Shown here: piece by piece, positions 19,413-25,822 of the stretch | Layout of the letters: every line of letters begins with the position of its first letter | Position numbering within the stretch: the stretch's first letter is position 1 | From: Clostridia bacterium | GTDB lineage: Bacteria > Bacillota > Clostridia > Christensenellales > Pumilibacteraceae | NCBI GenBank assembly: GCA_017500845.1 | Contig: JAFVXY010000005.1 | Location: 1-57,245, forward strand | Direction: 5' to 3' | Length of the DNA stretch: 57,245 nucleotides | Notes under the pieces: model-generated | Seen by the model: only the letters and a program-made list of their open reading frames with translations | The model's database searches: none | Told to the model about the DNA's origin: nothing | Made by a program: the position numbers and the translations under genes

Positions 19413-21815
19413 TTACAAAATATTTGCAAATATTTTCACTTGGCCATTGTCAAAATCAGCCGTAACGGCGTCACCGTCCTTAATTTTGCCGTCCAAAATC
19501 TCTTCGGCAATGGCATCTTCGATATTTTGCTCGATAACTCTACGCAACGGACGCGCTCCGTACTCCATATCATATCCCTTTTGGATAATAAATTCAAGCA
19601 TAGCATCAGTTACGTTTAGCCTAATATTACGCTCGTTAAGCTTCTTTTGCACCTTGCCAAGCATAAGGTGTGCAATCTTACCAATATCGTCCCTGGTAAG
19701 ATGGTTGAAAGTACAAATAACGTCGATACGGTTGAGAAATTCCGGCTTGAAGTGACGCTTAAGCGCAGAATTTATTACGTCCTCGGTTTTGCGCTCGTTG
19801 TCTGCCGCACCGCCGCCAAAGCCAAGTGAACGCACCGATTTAAGCTCGGCAACACCAACGTTTGACGTCATAATAATAATGGTGTTCTTAAAGCTTACCA
19901 GCCTACCCTGCGAATCAGTAAGTCTACCGTCGTCCATAAGCTGAAGCAAAATATTGTATACGTCCGGGTGAGCCTTTTCGATTTCGTCAAATAGCACTAC
20001 GCTGTACGGCTTACGGCGCACCTGCTCGGTAAGCTGACCACCGTCGTCAAAGCCCACGTACCCCGGAGGCGAGCCAATAAGCTTGCTGACGCTGTGTGAT
20101 TCCATATACTCGGACATATCCAAGCGTATAACCGCATTTTCGTCATCAAACATAACCTCGCTGAGCGCTTTGGTTAGCTCGGTTTTGCCTACACCGGTCG
20201 GTCCCATAAACAGAAACGTTCCTATCGGACGGTTTGGGTCTTTGAGTCCTGCTCTTGCTCTACGAATAGCTTTGGATACGCTTACCACCGCCTTGTCCTG
20301 ACCTATAACTCGCTCGTGCAAAATCTTTTCGAGATGAACAAGCCTTTCGGTCTCTGTTTCGGACAGCTTGCTTACGGGAATTTTTGTCCACTTTGCCACG
20401 ATTTCGGCAATGTTTTCGGCAGTAATCACGCCCTTTGTGCGCTCACTGCTTTTGCTCCAATCAAGCTTAGCACGCTCAATTTCTTTTATAAGCAGGTCAC
20501 GCTCGTTACGAAGCTGCATCGCTTTGGCGTAATCCTCGCTTGCCACGGCCTCGTCCTTTTGCTTGTTGAGCATAGCAAGGCGTTCTTCCATAACCTTTAC
20601 GTCGTCGGGAACGGTATTGCCGCTTACCTTAGCCTTGCTCATCGCCTCGTCGATAAGATCGATTGCCTTATCGGGCAAAAATCTGTCCATAATGTATCTG
20701 TCGGACATTTTTGCCGCCGCCTCGATTGCCTCGTCGGATAGTCTTACCTTGTGGAATGCCTCGTAATTTTCGCGCAACCCCTTGAGAATTTCGATAGTGT
20801 CCTCAACTGACGGCGGCGCTACGATGATGGGCTGAAATCTACGCTCTAAGGCTTTGTCCACCTCGATGTACTTGCGGTACTCATCTGTGGTAGTTGCTCC
20901 TATCGTTTGCAGCTCACCACGGGCAAGATACGGCTTGAGAATATCGGACGGTGAAACCTCTCCCTCCTTGCCACCTGCCTGTGCCAAGGTATGAAGCTCG
21001 TCAATAAACACGATTATATTGTTGTTTTCCTTAATTGCGTTTATTGCATCTTTCAGCTTTTCCTCCATTGCACCACGGTATTTTGTACCCGCAATTATGC
21101 TACCAATGTCAAGGCTGAATATTACTTTGTTTTTAAGCAGCTCAGGAACGTTGCCCTCTACGATTTCCTTGGCAAGTCCCTCTACCACTGCGCTCTTGCC
21201 CACACCCGGCTCGCCTATAAGCACAGGATTATTCTTGGTCTTACGACAAAGAATTTGAATTATACGCTCGATTTCGTCCTTTCTGCCGATAATTGGATCT
21301 ATTTTTTGCTGACGAGCCTTTTGTGTAATGTCTACACCAAGATCCCTTAACTGCTCGGGCAAAGAACTTTCCTCTTGTTGCAAAGCTCCCGTACCCTCTG
21401 CATTTTGCAAAGCGGCGGCAAGTGCGACTCTATCTACCTTGAATATGTTAGTCAAAATTCCGCAGGCAAGCGCCGCAGTATCCTCGAGAATACAATACAA
21501 AACACTTGCGCTGTTCGCATACGGATAACCTCTTTCGATACCACGCTTGTAGGCAGTAACAATAGTGCCGTTGACTCTTATACTAAGCTCGGGCTCACCC
21601 ATAATAACGACGTGACTTTCCTCACGCAAAATGTCCTCTATACGATCGGGCGTAACGCCGTATTCGGCAAGCAGCTTAGAAACCATGCTCTTGCTGTTTT
21701 TGGCAAGACCGTACAAAAGATGCTCGGTGCCCACCTCGGGATTCGAATATTTTATTGCCGCCTTTTTTGCTAAAATTAGTGCGGTCTTTAAATTTTCGGT
21801 TATTTGAACCTTCAT
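19413..21815 (-). CDS. clpC: AAA+ chaperone/protease ATPase ClpC
   Basis: 800 aa. It has an N-terminal Clp-N double repeat (1-140), a first AAA+ module with [13 protein letters not shown], a middle coiled-coil/UVR-like part (about 400-460), and a second AAA+ module with [13 protein letters not shown]. It unfolds substrates for ClpP, including proteins arginine-phosphorylated by McsB. It is the last gene of ctsR-mcsA-mcsB-clpC and starts 2 bp after mcsB. Confidence 0.96.
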
Positions 21816-21817
21816 TA

Positions 21818-22804
21818 CTAACCTCCTGTTCTCGTAATAATTTGCCTTAGCTTATAACATTTCTCTGCGCGAAGCTTGTCACGCTCGCCGCCAGAGGTCA
21901 TTCCGCCTGTGTCAAGGCAAAGACTTGCAGGCTGAATTTCTGCAATAAAGCTTTCAAGCGCCGCCATGTCGGCGCATTCCAACATTTTATAATATACCCC
22001 AAGCTTTACAAAAGCAATCAATTTCATAAATTCGCTTTTGCTTATCGCGTGGCAGTTGCACAATATCCCGTACGAACGCAAAATCTTGTCCTTTAGTCCG
22101 TCAGGGTCAGTTTGCATAAGTGCCGCGCGAGCCTTAATTTCGGACTCAACGATATGGTTTGCCACGTTCTCTACCGATGCAACTATGTCGCTTTCGGATA
22201 TCCCCAAGGTTTTTTGGTTGGAAATCTGATATACGTACCCCTCGGCTTCGCTACCCTCGCCGTACACGCCGCGTACCGCCATATTAAGCCTTGTCACGCC
22301 GCTTATACATTTATTTAGCGAGCCCGTAAGTGAAAGCGCGGGCAAAAACATCATTACCGAGGCCCTCATTCCCGTGCCAACGTTGGTAAGGCACGAGGTT
22401 AGATATCCGTAAGTTGAGCTAAATGCGAACTTAAACTCGCCGCCAAGCACCTTGTCTATATGACGAAGCTCTGCATACGCATCGTGAAGATTAAGTCCCT
22501 CTAAAATACATTGCTCACGAATATGATCTTCTTCGCCTATCATAACGCTTACCTTGTTGTCCGAGCGTATTATTGCACTCCCGCCGCAGTCGATAAGCTC
22601 CTTGCTTATAAGGTGCTTTTCGACAAGTCGAAGCTGCTCGATGGGTCTAAGCGCCGTCATCGGATACATGGTGTACGAATCCGTTGTGCGAAGAGCTGAC
22701 ATCGCCTTTGTCGCTATTGTAGAGGTATTTACACGCTTAAAGGGCAAGCCGTCCACATTGCGAGCAAGGCGAACCCTTGACGAAAGAATTATATTTTCGT
22801 TCAT
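21818..22804 (-). CDS. mcsB: Protein arginine kinase McsB
   Basis: 328 aa. It is an ATP:guanido phosphotransferase-type catalytic domain: SSRVRLARNVDG at the N-terminus and TNVGTGMRASVMMFLPALSL in the core. It phosphorylates arginines on CtsR and damaged proteins, marking them for ClpCP. The start overlaps the mcsA stop by 4 bp. The length is a little short of the usual 350 aa. Confidence 0.94.
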   Translation of the reverse strand: MNENIILSSRVRLARNVDGLPFKRVNTSTIATKAMSALRTTDSYTMYPMTALRPIEQLRLVEKHLISKELIDCGGSAIIRSDNKVSVMIGEEDHIREQCILEGLNLHDAYAELRHIDKVLGGEFKFAFSSTYGYLTSCLTNVGTGMRASVMMFLPALSLTGSLNKCISGVTRLNMAVRGVYGEGSEAEGYVYQISNQKTLGISESDIVASVENVANHIVESEIKARAALMQTDPDGLKDKILRSYGILCNCHAISKSEFMKLIAFVKLGVYYKMLECADMAALESFIAEIQPASLCLDTGGMTSGGERDKLRAEKCYKLRQIITRTGG

Positions 22805-23259
22805 TTTTCTTCTCCTTTAAGCTTTTTCAGCATTTCCTGAATTTTTAACGCTTGCTCGTAGTCCTCTGCTTCGACCGCTTTGCGAAGTCTGCCGTTAAGC
22901 TCAGCAATCTCGTCGCTTTTCTCGCCGTCAGGACCCGAGCCTATATGCATTTGTGCCGACTGCAAGTTGCGAAGAAGCGGCTTAAGCCTATCACCAAACT
23001 CGCTATAGCAATACTGACAGCCAACAAAGCAGGTGTCCGAAATTTCTCGCAAGGTCGTGCCGCATTTACTGCACTTTGCCTTAGCCCCGGGCACGCCCAT
23101 CAAGCCCGAAAATAGCCCCATATCGTCATAAGACGAGTACATTTCGAGCTGTGCTTGCTTGAAGCACTCGGGACAAACATAAACTCGCTTCTTTATTCCG
23201 TTTATGGTCGTTTCCATATATCCTGTAGCTTCTTTTTTGTTACATCTTTGACAAATCAT
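22801..23259 (-). CDS. mcsA: McsB activator McsA (zinc-finger UVR protein)
   Basis: 152 aa. Four CxxC pairs (CQRCN at the start, CPEC, CSKC, CQYC) bind zinc, and a C-terminal UVR motif (about 115-148, EAEDYEQALKIQEML) binds partner proteins. It activates McsB. Second gene of the operon. Confidence 0.93.
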   Translation of the reverse strand: MICQRCNKKEATGYMETTINGIKKRVYVCPECFKQAQLEMYSSYDDMGLFSGLMGVPGAKAKCSKCGTTLREISDTCFVGCQYCYSEFGDRLKPLLRNLQSAQMHIGSGPDGEKSDEIAELNGRLRKAVEAEDYEQALKIQEMLKKLKGEEK

Positions 23260-23268
23260 TTTTTACCT

Positions 23269-23718
23269 CTACTTAGAAAGTTCTTTGGCAAGCCCCTTTA
23301 TTATAGAAGCTCGCAACGTGTCCTTGTTTACCGCCGGCGCAACAAGTGACTTGTCACTAAGCATAGCGACCACAATCGCACCCTCGTGCTGGGACAAATA
23401 TCCCTCGCTGACTAACCTATCTACAATCTGACACGCTCGGTTATAGCTTACGCCCTCACTGATATTGATTTTGCTAAGCTCGTCAAGCAGATCGCTTTTG
23501 TTGCTGATTTTTAGCAGCGTAACGTATCCTCCGCCGCCCCGCCTCGACTCGATTATGTACCCCCTATCCAGCGTAAACCTTGTAGAAAGCACGTAATTTA
23601 TCTGACTCGGAGCGCAGTCAAAATAGTCGGCAAGCTCGTTGCGACTGATATTTATTCGGTCACTCTGCCCAAGCGAAGAAATCAAAAAACGCTCGATTAT
23701 GTCGCTGATATTTGCCAT
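23269..23718 (-). CDS. ctsR: Heat-shock transcriptional repressor CtsR
   Basis: 149 aa. N-terminal winged helix with SRNELADYFDCAPSQINYVL and the arginine/glycine-rich wing ESRRGGGGYV that reads DNA and senses temperature. A C-terminal helical domain interacts with McsB. ATG 23718 follows AGGAGG. It represses its own operon through the box at 23738-23754. Confidence 0.96.
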   Translation of the reverse strand: MANISDIIERFLISSLGQSDRINISRNELADYFDCAPSQINYVLSTRFTLDRGYIIESRRGGGGYVTLLKISNKSDLLDELSKINISEGVSYNRACQIVDRLVSEGYLSQHEGAIVVAMLSDKSLVAPAVNKDTLRASIIKGLAKELSK

Positions 23719-23737
23719 ACTTCCTCCTTTTGTAAAC

Positions 23738-23754
23738 TTTGACTTTCTTTGACC
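23738..23754 (-). promoter_or_regulatory. CtsR operator
   Basis: Minus strand GGTCAAA GAA AGTCAAA matches the tandem heptad CtsR consensus (A/GGTCAAA-N3-A/GGTCAAA). It lies between the -10 box and the ctsR start, where bound repressor would block transcription. Confidence 0.92.
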
Positions 23755-23763
23755 TTTGATTTT

Positions 23764-23791
23764 ATTATACACTATTTTTTTCTTTTGTCAA
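23764..23791 (-). promoter_or_regulatory. Sigma-A promoter of ctsR-mcsA-mcsB-clpC
   Basis: Minus strand TTGACA, 16-bp spacer, TATAAT, directly upstream of the CtsR operator. Confidence 0.85.
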
Positions 23792-23891
23792 GCCCTTTTT
23801 GTAAATTTTTGCAAAATATTTTTGCTTGATTTATGCTAATGATTGATTTTAATATTTTCAAAACTTAATTTTCTCTTTGTTCACAAATTGC

Positions 23892-23920
23892 TTGATAAAA
23901 CCTGATATTTGTGATAAACT
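23892..23920 (+). promoter_or_regulatory. Putative promoter of the hairpin RNA
   Basis: TTGATA, 17-bp spacer, TAAACT. Expected start of transcription near 23927, at the base of the large hairpin. The -10 box is only a fair match. Confidence 0.45.
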
Positions 23921-23922
23921 AA

Positions 23923-24137
23923 TCGTGCGAAACTAATTAAATAATCAGATTGGAGTATTTTCTTTTTGGGATATTATACTCTTTTTTGGTTCATACTGTT
24001 TTGGCATAAATTGTAAAAATGCAAATTCCCCAAAACAGTATACGGTGTAATATCCCAATCTGGTTTAGTTAGTTTCGCGACGACTGGAGTTTGCGTTTTT
24101 GTGCGTTGACTTCGGTCAGCGCACTTTTTTTATTTTT
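23923..24137 (+). ncRNA. Candidate structured RNA: 160-nt hierarchical hairpin plus terminator
   Basis: Four nested stems share one axis: 23923-23936 with 24069-24083 (one bulge), 23946-23953 with 24055-24062, 23968-23979 with 24045-24056 (one G-U), and 23993-24004 with 24030-24041 (12 bp, perfect). The left arm carries a 14-nt bulge between stems 2 and 3. A UUCG-capped terminator follows. A promoter-like sequence precedes it and a PH-domain gene comes next. It could be an independent small RNA, an attenuator for the PH gene, a 6S-like RNA or a MITE. It does not show the T-box AGGGTGG core. No Rfam class is recognised by eye. Confidence 0.6.
24101..24137 (+). terminator. UUCG-capped Rho-independent terminator
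   Basis: GTGCGTTGAC, TTCG loop, GTCAGCGCAC, then TTTTTTTA. Ten base pairs with a single G-U. It ends about 18 bp before the start codon of the PH-domain gene, so it either closes an upstream RNA or controls read-through into that gene. Confidence 0.9.
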
Positions 24138-24154
24138 GAAAAGGAGAGAAACAT

Positions 24155-24559
24155 ATGGGTTACATAGAAAAAAATGTATTAACCGCAGGCGAGACCATAA
24201 AAATCGTTCCTACAAAAAATTCCGCTATACTCGTATTAAAGTGGGTTTGGGGAATATTAGGATGTTGGCTTTTGTTGATTCCTACCATCCAAGCCATTGT
24301 AGCAACTGTAAAATTTAAGAATACCGAATATGTTGTTACAAGCAAAAGGGTTATAGAAAAAAGCGGCTGGGTATCCACACATACTGACGACATGCAATTG
24401 TCCAAAATTGAAAACATTACAGTAAACTACACGTTTTGGAGCAAAATTTTTAATTGTGGCACTTTGACTATTCAAGGAACAAACCGCAATCACGTTTCCT
24501 TTGTCAACATTAAGGATGCAGAACGTATAAAAAAAGAAATAAACAATTTAATAATTTAA
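24155..24559 (+). CDS. Bacterial PH-domain membrane protein (YdbT/DUF304 type)
   Basis: 134 aa. An N-terminal hydrophobic hairpin (about residues 25-50) is followed by a bPH2-type domain: TEYVVTSKRVIEKSGW, then DMQLSKIENITV and GTLTIQGTN. ATG 24155 follows AAGGAGAG. Such proteins are membrane-tethered with the PH-like domain in the cytoplasm; the ligand is not known. It is alone between a terminator upstream and one downstream, so its expression probably depends on read-through of the upstream hairpin region. Confidence 0.82.
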   Translation: MGYIEKNVLTAGETIKIVPTKNSAILVLKWVWGILGCWLLLIPTIQAIVATVKFKNTEYVVTSKRVIEKSGWVSTHTDDMQLSKIENITVNYTFWSKIFNCGTLTIQGTNRNHVSFVNIKDAERIKKEINNLII

Positions 24560-24622: not shown

Positions 24623-25822
24623 TTAATGTTTTACAAAAACGAGCGTCATATTTTCGCTTACTTCTCTCCTACCCACGCCGTCATCCTCGGATGCGGAATA
24701 AATGCACGTGCGTTTGCCCACTTTTAGTAATTTGTCGCGTATCGTCACACCCACGATAACACCACCCAAAAGCACGAGATTTTGTACATCACTTACCATG
24801 GACAGAGGCAACGCTTTGTCAAGCCTTTTTGTCCATTCCTCGTCACCGTAAGCATAGCTGCCTTCGTGCGAGTCTAAGATAAGCTTGAAATAGCTTGCTT
24901 GCTCGGATAGCGTTTTGCCGTAAAGGTGAGCTTTTAGCTCCGAATAGCCGTCTATATCATTTTGATCACCCTCAAACGCTATGGTCGTAATGGAATCAAA
25001 AGCGCTTATATTTGCAACCTCTTGATACGGTGTATCCAAAAAAGCATCTCTCTCAACATCCGTATCGCCAAGGAACGTCACGTGCTGTAATCTTTCACAG
25101 CCCTTAAAGGCTTCTTTGCCTATATAACGAAGTGACTTAGGAAAGCAGACGTTATCCAGCAGGATACAGCGCTGAAAAGAAAAGCTTTGTATTTGCTCGA
25201 CGCCCTCCTCGAACACTACTCTCTTAAGATTCTTACAATTACAAAAGGTGAGCTTTCCAATATACTTATACGAGCCGGAAATTACGATAGAACTAATATC
25301 GCTACCGTTGAACGTAATCCCTACATCTTCTACTCCGTGGGGAAGAACCACCTCATTCGGACACGAATTATACGCCCTACCTTCTATTTCTTGCAGCGAA
25401 CGCGGAAGCGCATAAGGTTGAAGCTTACTGCAACCTACAAAGGGAGTTGATATATATTCAATACTGTCAGGAAGAACAATCTCACAAAGCTCGGTAAAGT
25501 ACTTGAATGCGCCGTAGCAAACGGCCTTTGCACCCTCACCCACTATTACTTTTTTCACTCTTGACTTTATGGAAAGATTGGATTTGTCATAGATATCAAA
25601 ATATTCACCGTCATAATCGGCAAATACCGCAGGTACGTCTTCAAAGCCGTCCAGAGTAAGAACGCCTTGGCAAAGCCTTACCTTACGCTCACCGTCCTCA
25701 TAAAAAAGCTCTTCGCCCTCGTCAATGAGCGTAACGAGTCTTTTACATTCATTATCTTGCAAGCAGAGAGCGATTTTACCCCTTTGTTCATCGCTTATAA
25801 ACGTTAGTCGCATTCTTTCCAT
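24623..25822 (-). CDS. BspA-type leucine-rich-repeat protein
   Basis: 399 aa without a signal peptide. Residues about 80-260 hold LRR_5-like repeats (for example IVLPDSIEYI, CFPKSLRYIGKEAFKGCERL, VVFEEGVEQI). No membrane segment is evident in the C-terminal 100 residues, though one weakly hydrophobic stretch is present (VQNLVLLGGVIVGV). BspA repeats often sit in surface proteins, but the lack of an export signal suggests a cytoplasmic role here. AAGGGGA precedes ATG 25822. It follows the ClC gene by 31 bp. Confidence 0.72.
   Translation of the reverse strand: MERMRLTFISDEQRGKIALCLQDNECKRLVTLIDEGEELFYEDGERKVRLCQGVLTLDGFEDVPAVFADYDGEYFDIYDKSNLSIKSRVKKVIVGEGAKAVCYGAFKYFTELCEIVLPDSIEYISTPFVGCSKLQPYALPRSLQEIEGRAYNSCPNEVVLPHGVEDVGITFNGSDISSIVISGSYKYIGKLTFCNCKNLKRVVFEEGVEQIQSFSFQRCILLDNVCFPKSLRYIGKEAFKGCERLQHVTFLGDTDVERDAFLDTPYQEVANISAFDSITTIAFEGDQNDIDGYSELKAHLYGKTLSEQASYFKLILDSHEGSYAYGDEEWTKRLDKALPLSMVSDVQNLVLLGGVIVGVTIRDKLLKVGKRTCIYSASEDDGVGRREVSENMTLVFVKH

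What the first reader, a model, noticed from the sequence alone, without database searches (positions are those of the whole stretch)
23892..24137. Candidate new structured RNA: long hierarchical hairpin with its own promoter and UUCG terminator
Four coaxial stems (14, 8, 12 and 12 bp) fold 23923-24083 into one long arm with a one-sided 14-nt bulge, and a UUCG-capped terminator follows. A promoter-like sequence puts +1 at the base of the arm. The next gene is a PH-domain membrane protein with its SD right after the terminator. This could be an sRNA of about 205 nt, a 6S-like RNA, a transcription attenuator of the PH gene, or a MITE.
Basis: partly seen in the sequence, partly recalled or inferred. 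Interest (0 to 1): 0.7.

Follow-up and report, generated by a model that had tools for sequence, protein, structure and literature searches.

The report
Pseudoknot-switched transcription attenuator of gut Clostridia
The long hairpin is one copy of an apparently undescribed RNA switch, found in front of many surface-protein and accessory genes of gut Clostridia, that is predicted to decide whether transcription stops just before the gene or runs into it.

Summary
Hairpin and UUCG terminator are real. This is no 6S RNA, T-box or MITE but one member of a family without an Rfam match, found in 34 of 74 genomes of its family and 91 of 391 of class Clostridia. Of 182 distinct copies, 173 could be scored; 165 precede a same-strand gene, median 21 nt from U-run to start codon.

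The 3' half holds a four-helix attenuator. A 15-nt apical segment (24015-24029) can pair with a linker (24086-24100); the linker's start, with the strand before it, can instead pair with the terminator's loop and 3' strand (antiterminator). Covariation supports the basal stem, antiterminator, terminator and, mainly in a divergent subfamily, the apical-linker helix. Folding the 3' region gives a median terminator probability of 0.002 with the linker free and 0.994 with it blocked; ordinary terminators give 0.991. Downstream genes are enriched in secreted proteins and lipoproteins.

I read it as a new cis-acting transcription attenuator, an orphan-riboswitch-like leader. The signal is unknown; nothing was tested at the bench.

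The parts
23892..23897 (+). -35 element TTGATA
   Evidence: in relatives the best-fitting promoter has a 17-nt spacer in 163 of 180 elements scored, 16-19 nt allowed
23915..23920 (+). -10 element TAAACT with TGTG just before it
23927..24131 (+). attenuator leader RNA from predicted +1 (GCGAAAC) to the end of the terminator U-run, 205 nt
   Evidence: median 206 nt over 184 relatives' hits, one of them with an artefactual length
23927..23940 (+). basal stem P1, 5' strand
   Evidence: the 9 base-proximal pairs are 100% paired and 7 of 9 change on both sides in 24 relatives
24065..24078 (+). basal stem P1, 3' strand
23967..24057 (+). long arm: 14-bp helix 23967-23980/24044-24057, U-rich one-sided bulge, 12-bp helix 23993-24004/24030-24041
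   Evidence: against the closest relative L153 the 58 consensus pairs of the element are 47 same, 5 changed on one side, 6 compensatory, 0 broken
24011..24024 (+). helix H1: local apical hairpin 24011-24015/24020-24024 that holds part of the apical segment
   Evidence: at least 5 of the 15 nt locally paired in 175 of 182 elements
24015..24029 (+). apical segment AAAAATGCAAATTCC, 5' strand of long-range helix H2
24086..24100 (+). linker GGAGTTTGCGTTTTT, 3' strand of H2 (anti-antiterminator); its first nucleotides also belong to the antiterminator
24077..24091 (+). helix H3: antiterminator 5' strand (GCG 24077-24079 and GACTGGAGTT 24082-24091)
24108..24122 (+). helix H3: antiterminator 3' strand (24108-24117 and 24120-24122), within the terminator loop and 3' strand
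24101..24131 (+). helix H4: intrinsic terminator, stem 24101-24110/24115-24124, UUCG loop, U-run 24125-24131
   Evidence: in 28 relatives 97.5% of cells paired, 5 of 10 pairs with changes on both sides
24155..24559 (+). controlled gene: 134-aa protein with bacterial PH domain (bPH_2), SD just after the terminator

Best explanation
This is a cis-acting transcription attenuator, one copy of a new leader-RNA family of class Clostridia. RNA polymerase starts at its own promoter at GCGAAAC and makes a leader of about 205 nt. The leader folds into a long arm whose apical segment can pair, as a pseudoknot, with the 15-nt linker just upstream of the terminator (H2). With the linker held in H2, the terminator (H4) forms and transcription stops before the gene. 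With the apical segment kept in its local hairpin (H1) or otherwise occupied, the start of the linker and the strand before it pair with the terminator loop and 3' strand (H3, antiterminator), and transcription runs into the gene. Supported by comparative sequence data: the family, its place upstream of genes, and pairing of P1, H2, H3 and H4. Computed only: that holding the linker flips the terminator. Inferred: that a signal (metabolite, ion or RNA-binding protein) acting on the arm or on the H1/H2 balance sets the choice. Which signal is unknown.
For: Family and place: CM search, 34 of 74 family genomes and 91 of 391 class genomes, own genome counted in both; 165 of 173 scorable copies have a same-strand gene next, median 21 nt. 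H2: 98.3% of cells paired in 28 sequences; 80 variable elements pair better with their own partner (14.63 of 15) than in any of 200 shuffles (best 14.43); in a divergent subfamily (23 matches from two genomes) 10 of the 15 H2 pairs show changes on both sides, and the whole 25-pair structure 84 double-changed cells against 26.9 shuffled. H3: 95.6% of cells paired, 13 double-changed cells against 4.2; in the 129 of 182 elements with canonical geometry 248 of 258 pairs at the two variable positions form, against 174.8 expected and at most 195 in 1000 permutations; own-partner duplex -17.35 against -14.91 permuted, best of 100 permutations -15.3. P1: 100% paired, 7 of 9 pairs change on both sides. 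Switch: folding the 3' region of 181 elements, terminator probability median 0.002 with the linker free (below 0.1 in 144) and 0.994 with it blocked (above 0.9 in 174); window 0.005 and 0.998. 300 other terminators of the same loci: median 0.991, 14 below 0.1. H1 overlaps H2 in both subfamilies by different base choices. All 24 exact matches to the apical or linker 15-mer in six genomes lie in such elements; 14 one-mismatch matches lie elsewhere, as many as the control pattern gives (15), so no separate trans RNA shows.
Against: No transcript data. With the whole element folded the free-linker effect is weaker: terminator below 0.1 in 31 of 60 sampled, median 0.083, and 0.26 for the window. 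H2 hardly varies in the main subfamily: in A1 only 2 of 15 pairs show a change on both sides, one sequence each, and own-partner duplexes are only slightly better than permuted (-18.01 against -17.54). In A1 the number of H3 pairs with changes on both sides (2) is no higher than shuffled (2.3). Within G113 the best of 300 permutations of apical-linker partners (-14.58) beats the true pairing (-14.21), and within G435 the same holds for the antiterminator (-13.53 against -13.31); the own partner is best for 2 of 10 and 4 of 13 (apical-linker) and 7 of 10 and 2 of 13 (antiterminator). The divergent alignment was fitted to the model. Sequences are related, and elements were picked by regular expressions near the consensus, which inflates pairing percentages. 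About half of the family's genomes show no match. Pseudoknot geometry and cost were not modelled.
Confidence: 0.82

Rival explanations
1. A free-standing small RNA that acts in trans, with its position before genes incidental.
For: Promoter-like sequence and terminator make a discrete RNA of about 205 nt; apical and linker sequences are nearly invariant among main-subfamily copies. L085 has two tandem copies without a clear gene behind them.
Against: 165 of 173 scorable copies directly precede a same-strand gene, often with the SD within a few nt of the U-run; an antiterminator has no use in a plain sRNA gene; no RNA with the full complement outside the elements in six genomes.
Confidence: 0.07
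2. A cis-acting RNA that modifies RNA polymerase for processive antitermination (like put or EAR, named from recall).
For: Conserved structured RNA between a promoter and a terminator, upstream of unrelated genes.
Against: The local antiterminator explains readthrough without it. Processive systems are known mainly for long operons (recall); operon lengths behind this leader were not measured.
Confidence: 0.04
3. An RNA antitoxin or partner RNA of the downstream protein, as RCd22 is for AbiF in C. difficile (PMC12373285, passages read).
For: Same layout: SigA-type promoter, structured RNA, terminator, gene.
Against: Downstream proteins are unrelated: 69 Pfam families among the 150 scanned; no Rfam abiF match among the results.
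Confidence: 0.03
4. A miniature transposable element (MITE).
For: Several copies per genome, 10-21 in nine genomes chosen for high counts; near-identical leaders before different genes in two genera.
Against: The own assembly has 2 copies alike only over about 70 nt; arms diverge but keep pairing; orientation to the next gene is nearly fixed.
Confidence: 0.02

Closest known systems
Transcription attenuators and riboswitch expression platforms with anti-antiterminator, antiterminator and terminator (general kind, recalled; a genome survey of attenuators is PMC2965389, passages read)
   Same: Promoter, arm or sensing domain, mutually exclusive antiterminator and terminator, gene directly behind
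   Different: The anti-antiterminator here is a 15-bp pseudoknot between the apical loop of a roughly 150-nt arm and the linker; one module precedes many unrelated gene families
RCd22/abiF leader of C. difficile (Rfam RF03085 according to PMC12373285, passages read)
   Same: SigA-type promoter, structured RNA of about 130 nt, Rho-independent terminator, readthrough into the gene
   Different: Serves one toxin gene, carries two small motifs, binds the protein; no Rfam abiF match here
T-box leaders
   Same: Leader with terminator and antiterminator in Firmicutes (recall)
   Different: No T-box match in the window or in the 16 loci scanned
6S RNA
   Same: Long hairpin with a one-sided bulge (recall)
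   Different: No 6S match; own terminator and a following gene

Membership tests
Transcription attenuator (cis-regulatory leader) | intrinsic terminator between promoter and start codon of a same-strand gene | tested here: met
   (165 of 173 scorable; 9 of 182 not scorable)
Transcription attenuator (cis-regulatory leader) | antiterminator mutually exclusive with the terminator and conserved by covariation | tested here: met
   (computational only)
Transcription attenuator (cis-regulatory leader) | readthrough changes with a signal | not testable with these tools
   no expression data
Riboswitch | direct binding of a small molecule or ion by a conserved pocket | not testable with these tools
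   conserved unpaired strand after P1 and an A-rich stretch next to it are suggestive only
T-box | match to the Rfam T-box model | tested here: not met
6S RNA | match to Rfam 6S models | tested here: not met
MITE | many near-identical copies in the genome | tested here: not met
   2 matches in the 75%-complete assembly, the second 76% over about 70 nt
MITE | target-site duplications | not tested
   no empty site of a close strain was sought

The most novel reading that the evidence does not exclude
A riboswitch-like sensor of a common small molecule or second messenger, built on a fold-back pseudoknot (possibly with the U-rich bulge as third strand on the A5-U5 pairs), that wires unrelated accessory genes (surface LRR proteins, lipoproteins, a methylase, a gene on a viral contig) of gut Clostridia into one regulon as a portable promoter-plus-attenuator cassette.
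Probability: 0.3. Interest if true: 0.9.

Novelty: new variant of a known kind. Interest (0 to 1): 0.74.

Why it matters
If right, about a quarter of the sampled Clostridia species (91 of 391) carry an RNA switch class that the searched copy of Rfam lacks, with up to 21 matches in one genome, in front of surface and accessory genes of gut bacteria. It is a ready-made orphan-riboswitch problem: a fully specified four-helix switch with an unknown input, and a regulon that can be listed by sequence alone.

Tried and rejected
Rfam at gathering and relaxed thresholds: no related family. IMG/VR with the strict pattern: none; relaxed pattern: three contigs with the same element over the matched stretch. 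Plasmids: no match. Phages: one unannotated fecal record, upstream of a gene that reads like an EcoRI-type methylase. Phylum search: 3 of 299 including the own genome; the other two I judge false from their alignments. A trans-acting complementary RNA: none found in six genomes. Leader pairing to the terminator 5' half: no better than shuffled in 90 sampled elements; the 3' half did better, which led to the antiterminator. Literature searches listed no paper that I could tell describes it; supplements of the human-microbiome RNA survey PMC8040213 (passages read) could not be opened, so a bare listing there is not excluded. A short ORF in the leader: looked at by eye only, none seemed conserved. 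Downstream-gene functions did not point to one pathway. The PADLOC scan gave mostly single hits.

Full report
What was checked. The region folds far better than chance: -81 kcal/mol for 23892-24137, shuffles -46.5 +/- 4.1, z -8.5. The next gene encodes a 134-aa protein with a bacterial PH domain, and ctsR lies upstream and divergent. Rfam has no match at gathering thresholds in the whole window and only weak ones at relaxed thresholds in 23800-24200.

Relatives. BLASTN of the 241-nt region found matches in 21 of 61 genomes, own included, mostly over the last ~70 nt; the single matches of G008 (21 nt) and G056 (31 nt) lie elsewhere in the query and are not counted by me as relatives. Reading 20 loci showed a shared plan: promoter, basal stem GCxAAAC/GTTTxGC, long arms of variable sequence, apical AAAAATGCAAATTCC, then GCGAC..TCGGAGTTTGCGTTTTT, a terminator and usually a gene. 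A covariance model of the apical-to-terminator part (28 sequences) matched 34 of 74 genomes of the same family and 91 of 391 of class Clostridia, in 54 of 223 genera (8 candidates per genome scored). Some of these genomes have only weak matches (E 1e-3 to 1e-6). In a 299-genome draw from the phylum 3 matched, one being the own genome; I judge the other two false from their alignments. Twelve genomes, nine of them chosen for high counts, have 2 to 21 matches at E <= 0.001 when 150 candidates each are scored. The own assembly (75% complete) has two copies; the gene behind the second has no Pfam match.

Position. From 234 loci a script collected 197 regex hits, of which 182 distinct elements passed filters on basal stem and length. 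The filter means that pairing percentages on this set are not independent evidence. 173 could be scored for the next gene with a crude ORF caller: 165 same strand, 8 opposite; U-run to start codon median 21 nt, quartiles 19 and 63.5. The promoter consensus is TTGa, 17 nt, TATAaT with TG before it; spacer 17 in 163 of 180. So this is a leader with its own promoter and a terminator between promoter and gene.

The switch. Helix H2: apical segment and linker form 15 pairs; in A1 98.3% of cells pair, and 140 of 182 elements have all 15. Little varies in the main subfamily (2 of 15 pairs with a change on both sides in A1), but 80 variable elements pair better with their own partner (14.63) than in any of 200 shuffles (best 14.43). 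A divergent subfamily (23 matches from G113 and G435) has different apical and linker sequences that still match: 10 of the 15 H2 pairs show changes on both sides, and all 25 pairs of the model together show 84 double-changed cells against 26.9 shuffled; that alignment was fitted to the model. Helix H3: the strand GCGAC..TCGGAGT is complementary to the terminator's loop and 3' strand. In A1 95.6% of 363 cells pair, with 13 double-changed cells against 4.2 shuffled; the number of pairs with such a change (2) is not above shuffles. In 129 elements with the canonical spacing (53 set aside) the two variable bases before the linker match the terminator bases in 248 of 258 cases; independence predicts 174.8, maximum 195 in 1000 permutations. 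In the divergent subfamily the terminator loop is often not UUCG yet pairs with its own linker. Within G113 the own terminator is the best antiterminator partner for 7 of 10 copies, in G435 only for 2 of 13; for apical and linker it is 2 of 10 and 4 of 13, and permutations within G113 can equal the true apical-linker pairing. Helix P1: 100% paired, 7 of 9 pairs with changes on both sides. Terminator: 97.5%.

Exclusivity. H1 and H2 share the apical segment, H2 and H3 share GGAGU of the linker, H3 and H4 share the terminator 3' strand. The free 3' region folds better than the terminator hairpin alone by more than 1 kcal/mol in 178 of 182. Median terminator probability in that region is 0.002 with the linker free and 0.994 with the 15 linker positions kept unpaired, as if held in H2 (181 elements; below 0.1 in 144 and above 0.9 in 174; window 0.005 and 0.998). 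In whole elements (60 sampled) it is 0.083 and 0.995; for the whole window element 0.26 and 0.998. For 300 of 317 other terminator-like hairpins of the same loci with 26 nt upstream the median is 0.991, with 14 below 0.1. In the main subfamily the local hairpin H1 uses GAAUUUG/CAAAUUC, in the divergent one often U5..A5; both hide part of the apical segment. That two different sequences serve the same exclusion is, to me, the best sign of a switch; it is an inference.

The window copy. Closest full-length relative among the 182: L153, 78% identical over 207 nt; of 58 consensus pairs 47 are the same, 5 changed on one side, 6 compensatory, 0 broken. L153 precedes an LRR gene with a lipoprotein-like start, not a PH gene, so the leader changes partners. 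Near-identical leaders in two genera before different genes (L006, L007: 95% over 394 nt) say the same.

Genes behind it. Among 150 of 161 downstream proteins Pfam finds 69 families, led by BspA-type LRR (21), Listeria-Bacteroides repeat (6), AMP-binding, SHOCT, zinc ribbon (4 each) and EcoRI methylase (3). By a simple hydrophobicity rule 88 of 161 look secreted and 47 of 161 have a lipobox, against 59 and 18 of 373 other ORFs of the same loci. The rule is home-made and the background needs an ATG, an SD and 150 codons, so the comparison is rough; for downstream proteins of at least 150 aa it is 75 and 43 of 114.

Limits. No RNA data; energies are models without the pseudoknot's own cost; sequences are related. 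The order of events in transcription (H2 can form before the terminator is made) suggests OFF as the default, but that is reasoning only. The sensed signal is unknown. Recalled and not from a call: put, EAR, 6S and T-box architecture, and the general attenuator scheme.

Noticed in passing
window 24623-25822 (-): BspA-type LRR protein gene (LRR_5, E 1e-29) converges on the PH gene; LRR proteins are also the commonest class behind this leader elsewhere.
   Followed up: partly
window 19413-23772 (-): ctsR (Pfam) followed by genes that look like mcsA, mcsB and clpC (by reading, not searched), divergent from the leader, with a 12-of-12 sigma-70-type promoter at 23764-23791 (-).
   Followed up: no
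L006 1-391 and L007 1202-1594: Leader and upstream DNA 95% identical over 394 nt in two genera, then different genes.
   Followed up: partly
L239 2844-2970: Viral contig with the leader before a gene with a weak zinc-ribbon match, near a gene that looks by reading like a phage terminase small subunit.
   Followed up: partly
L015 1153-1225; L005 62-134; L089 2017-2089: tRNA genes lie within about 1 kb of some leader copies.
   Followed up: no
5' side of the arm, window 23981-23988 and relatives: A run of five or more T on the longer 5' side of the arm in 166 of 182 elements, 68 expected by shuffling; role unknown, possibly a hinge or a third strand on the A5-U5 pairs.
   Followed up: partly
L085, linkers at 1241 and 1585: Two tandem copies 344 nt apart without a clear gene behind them.
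   Followed up: no
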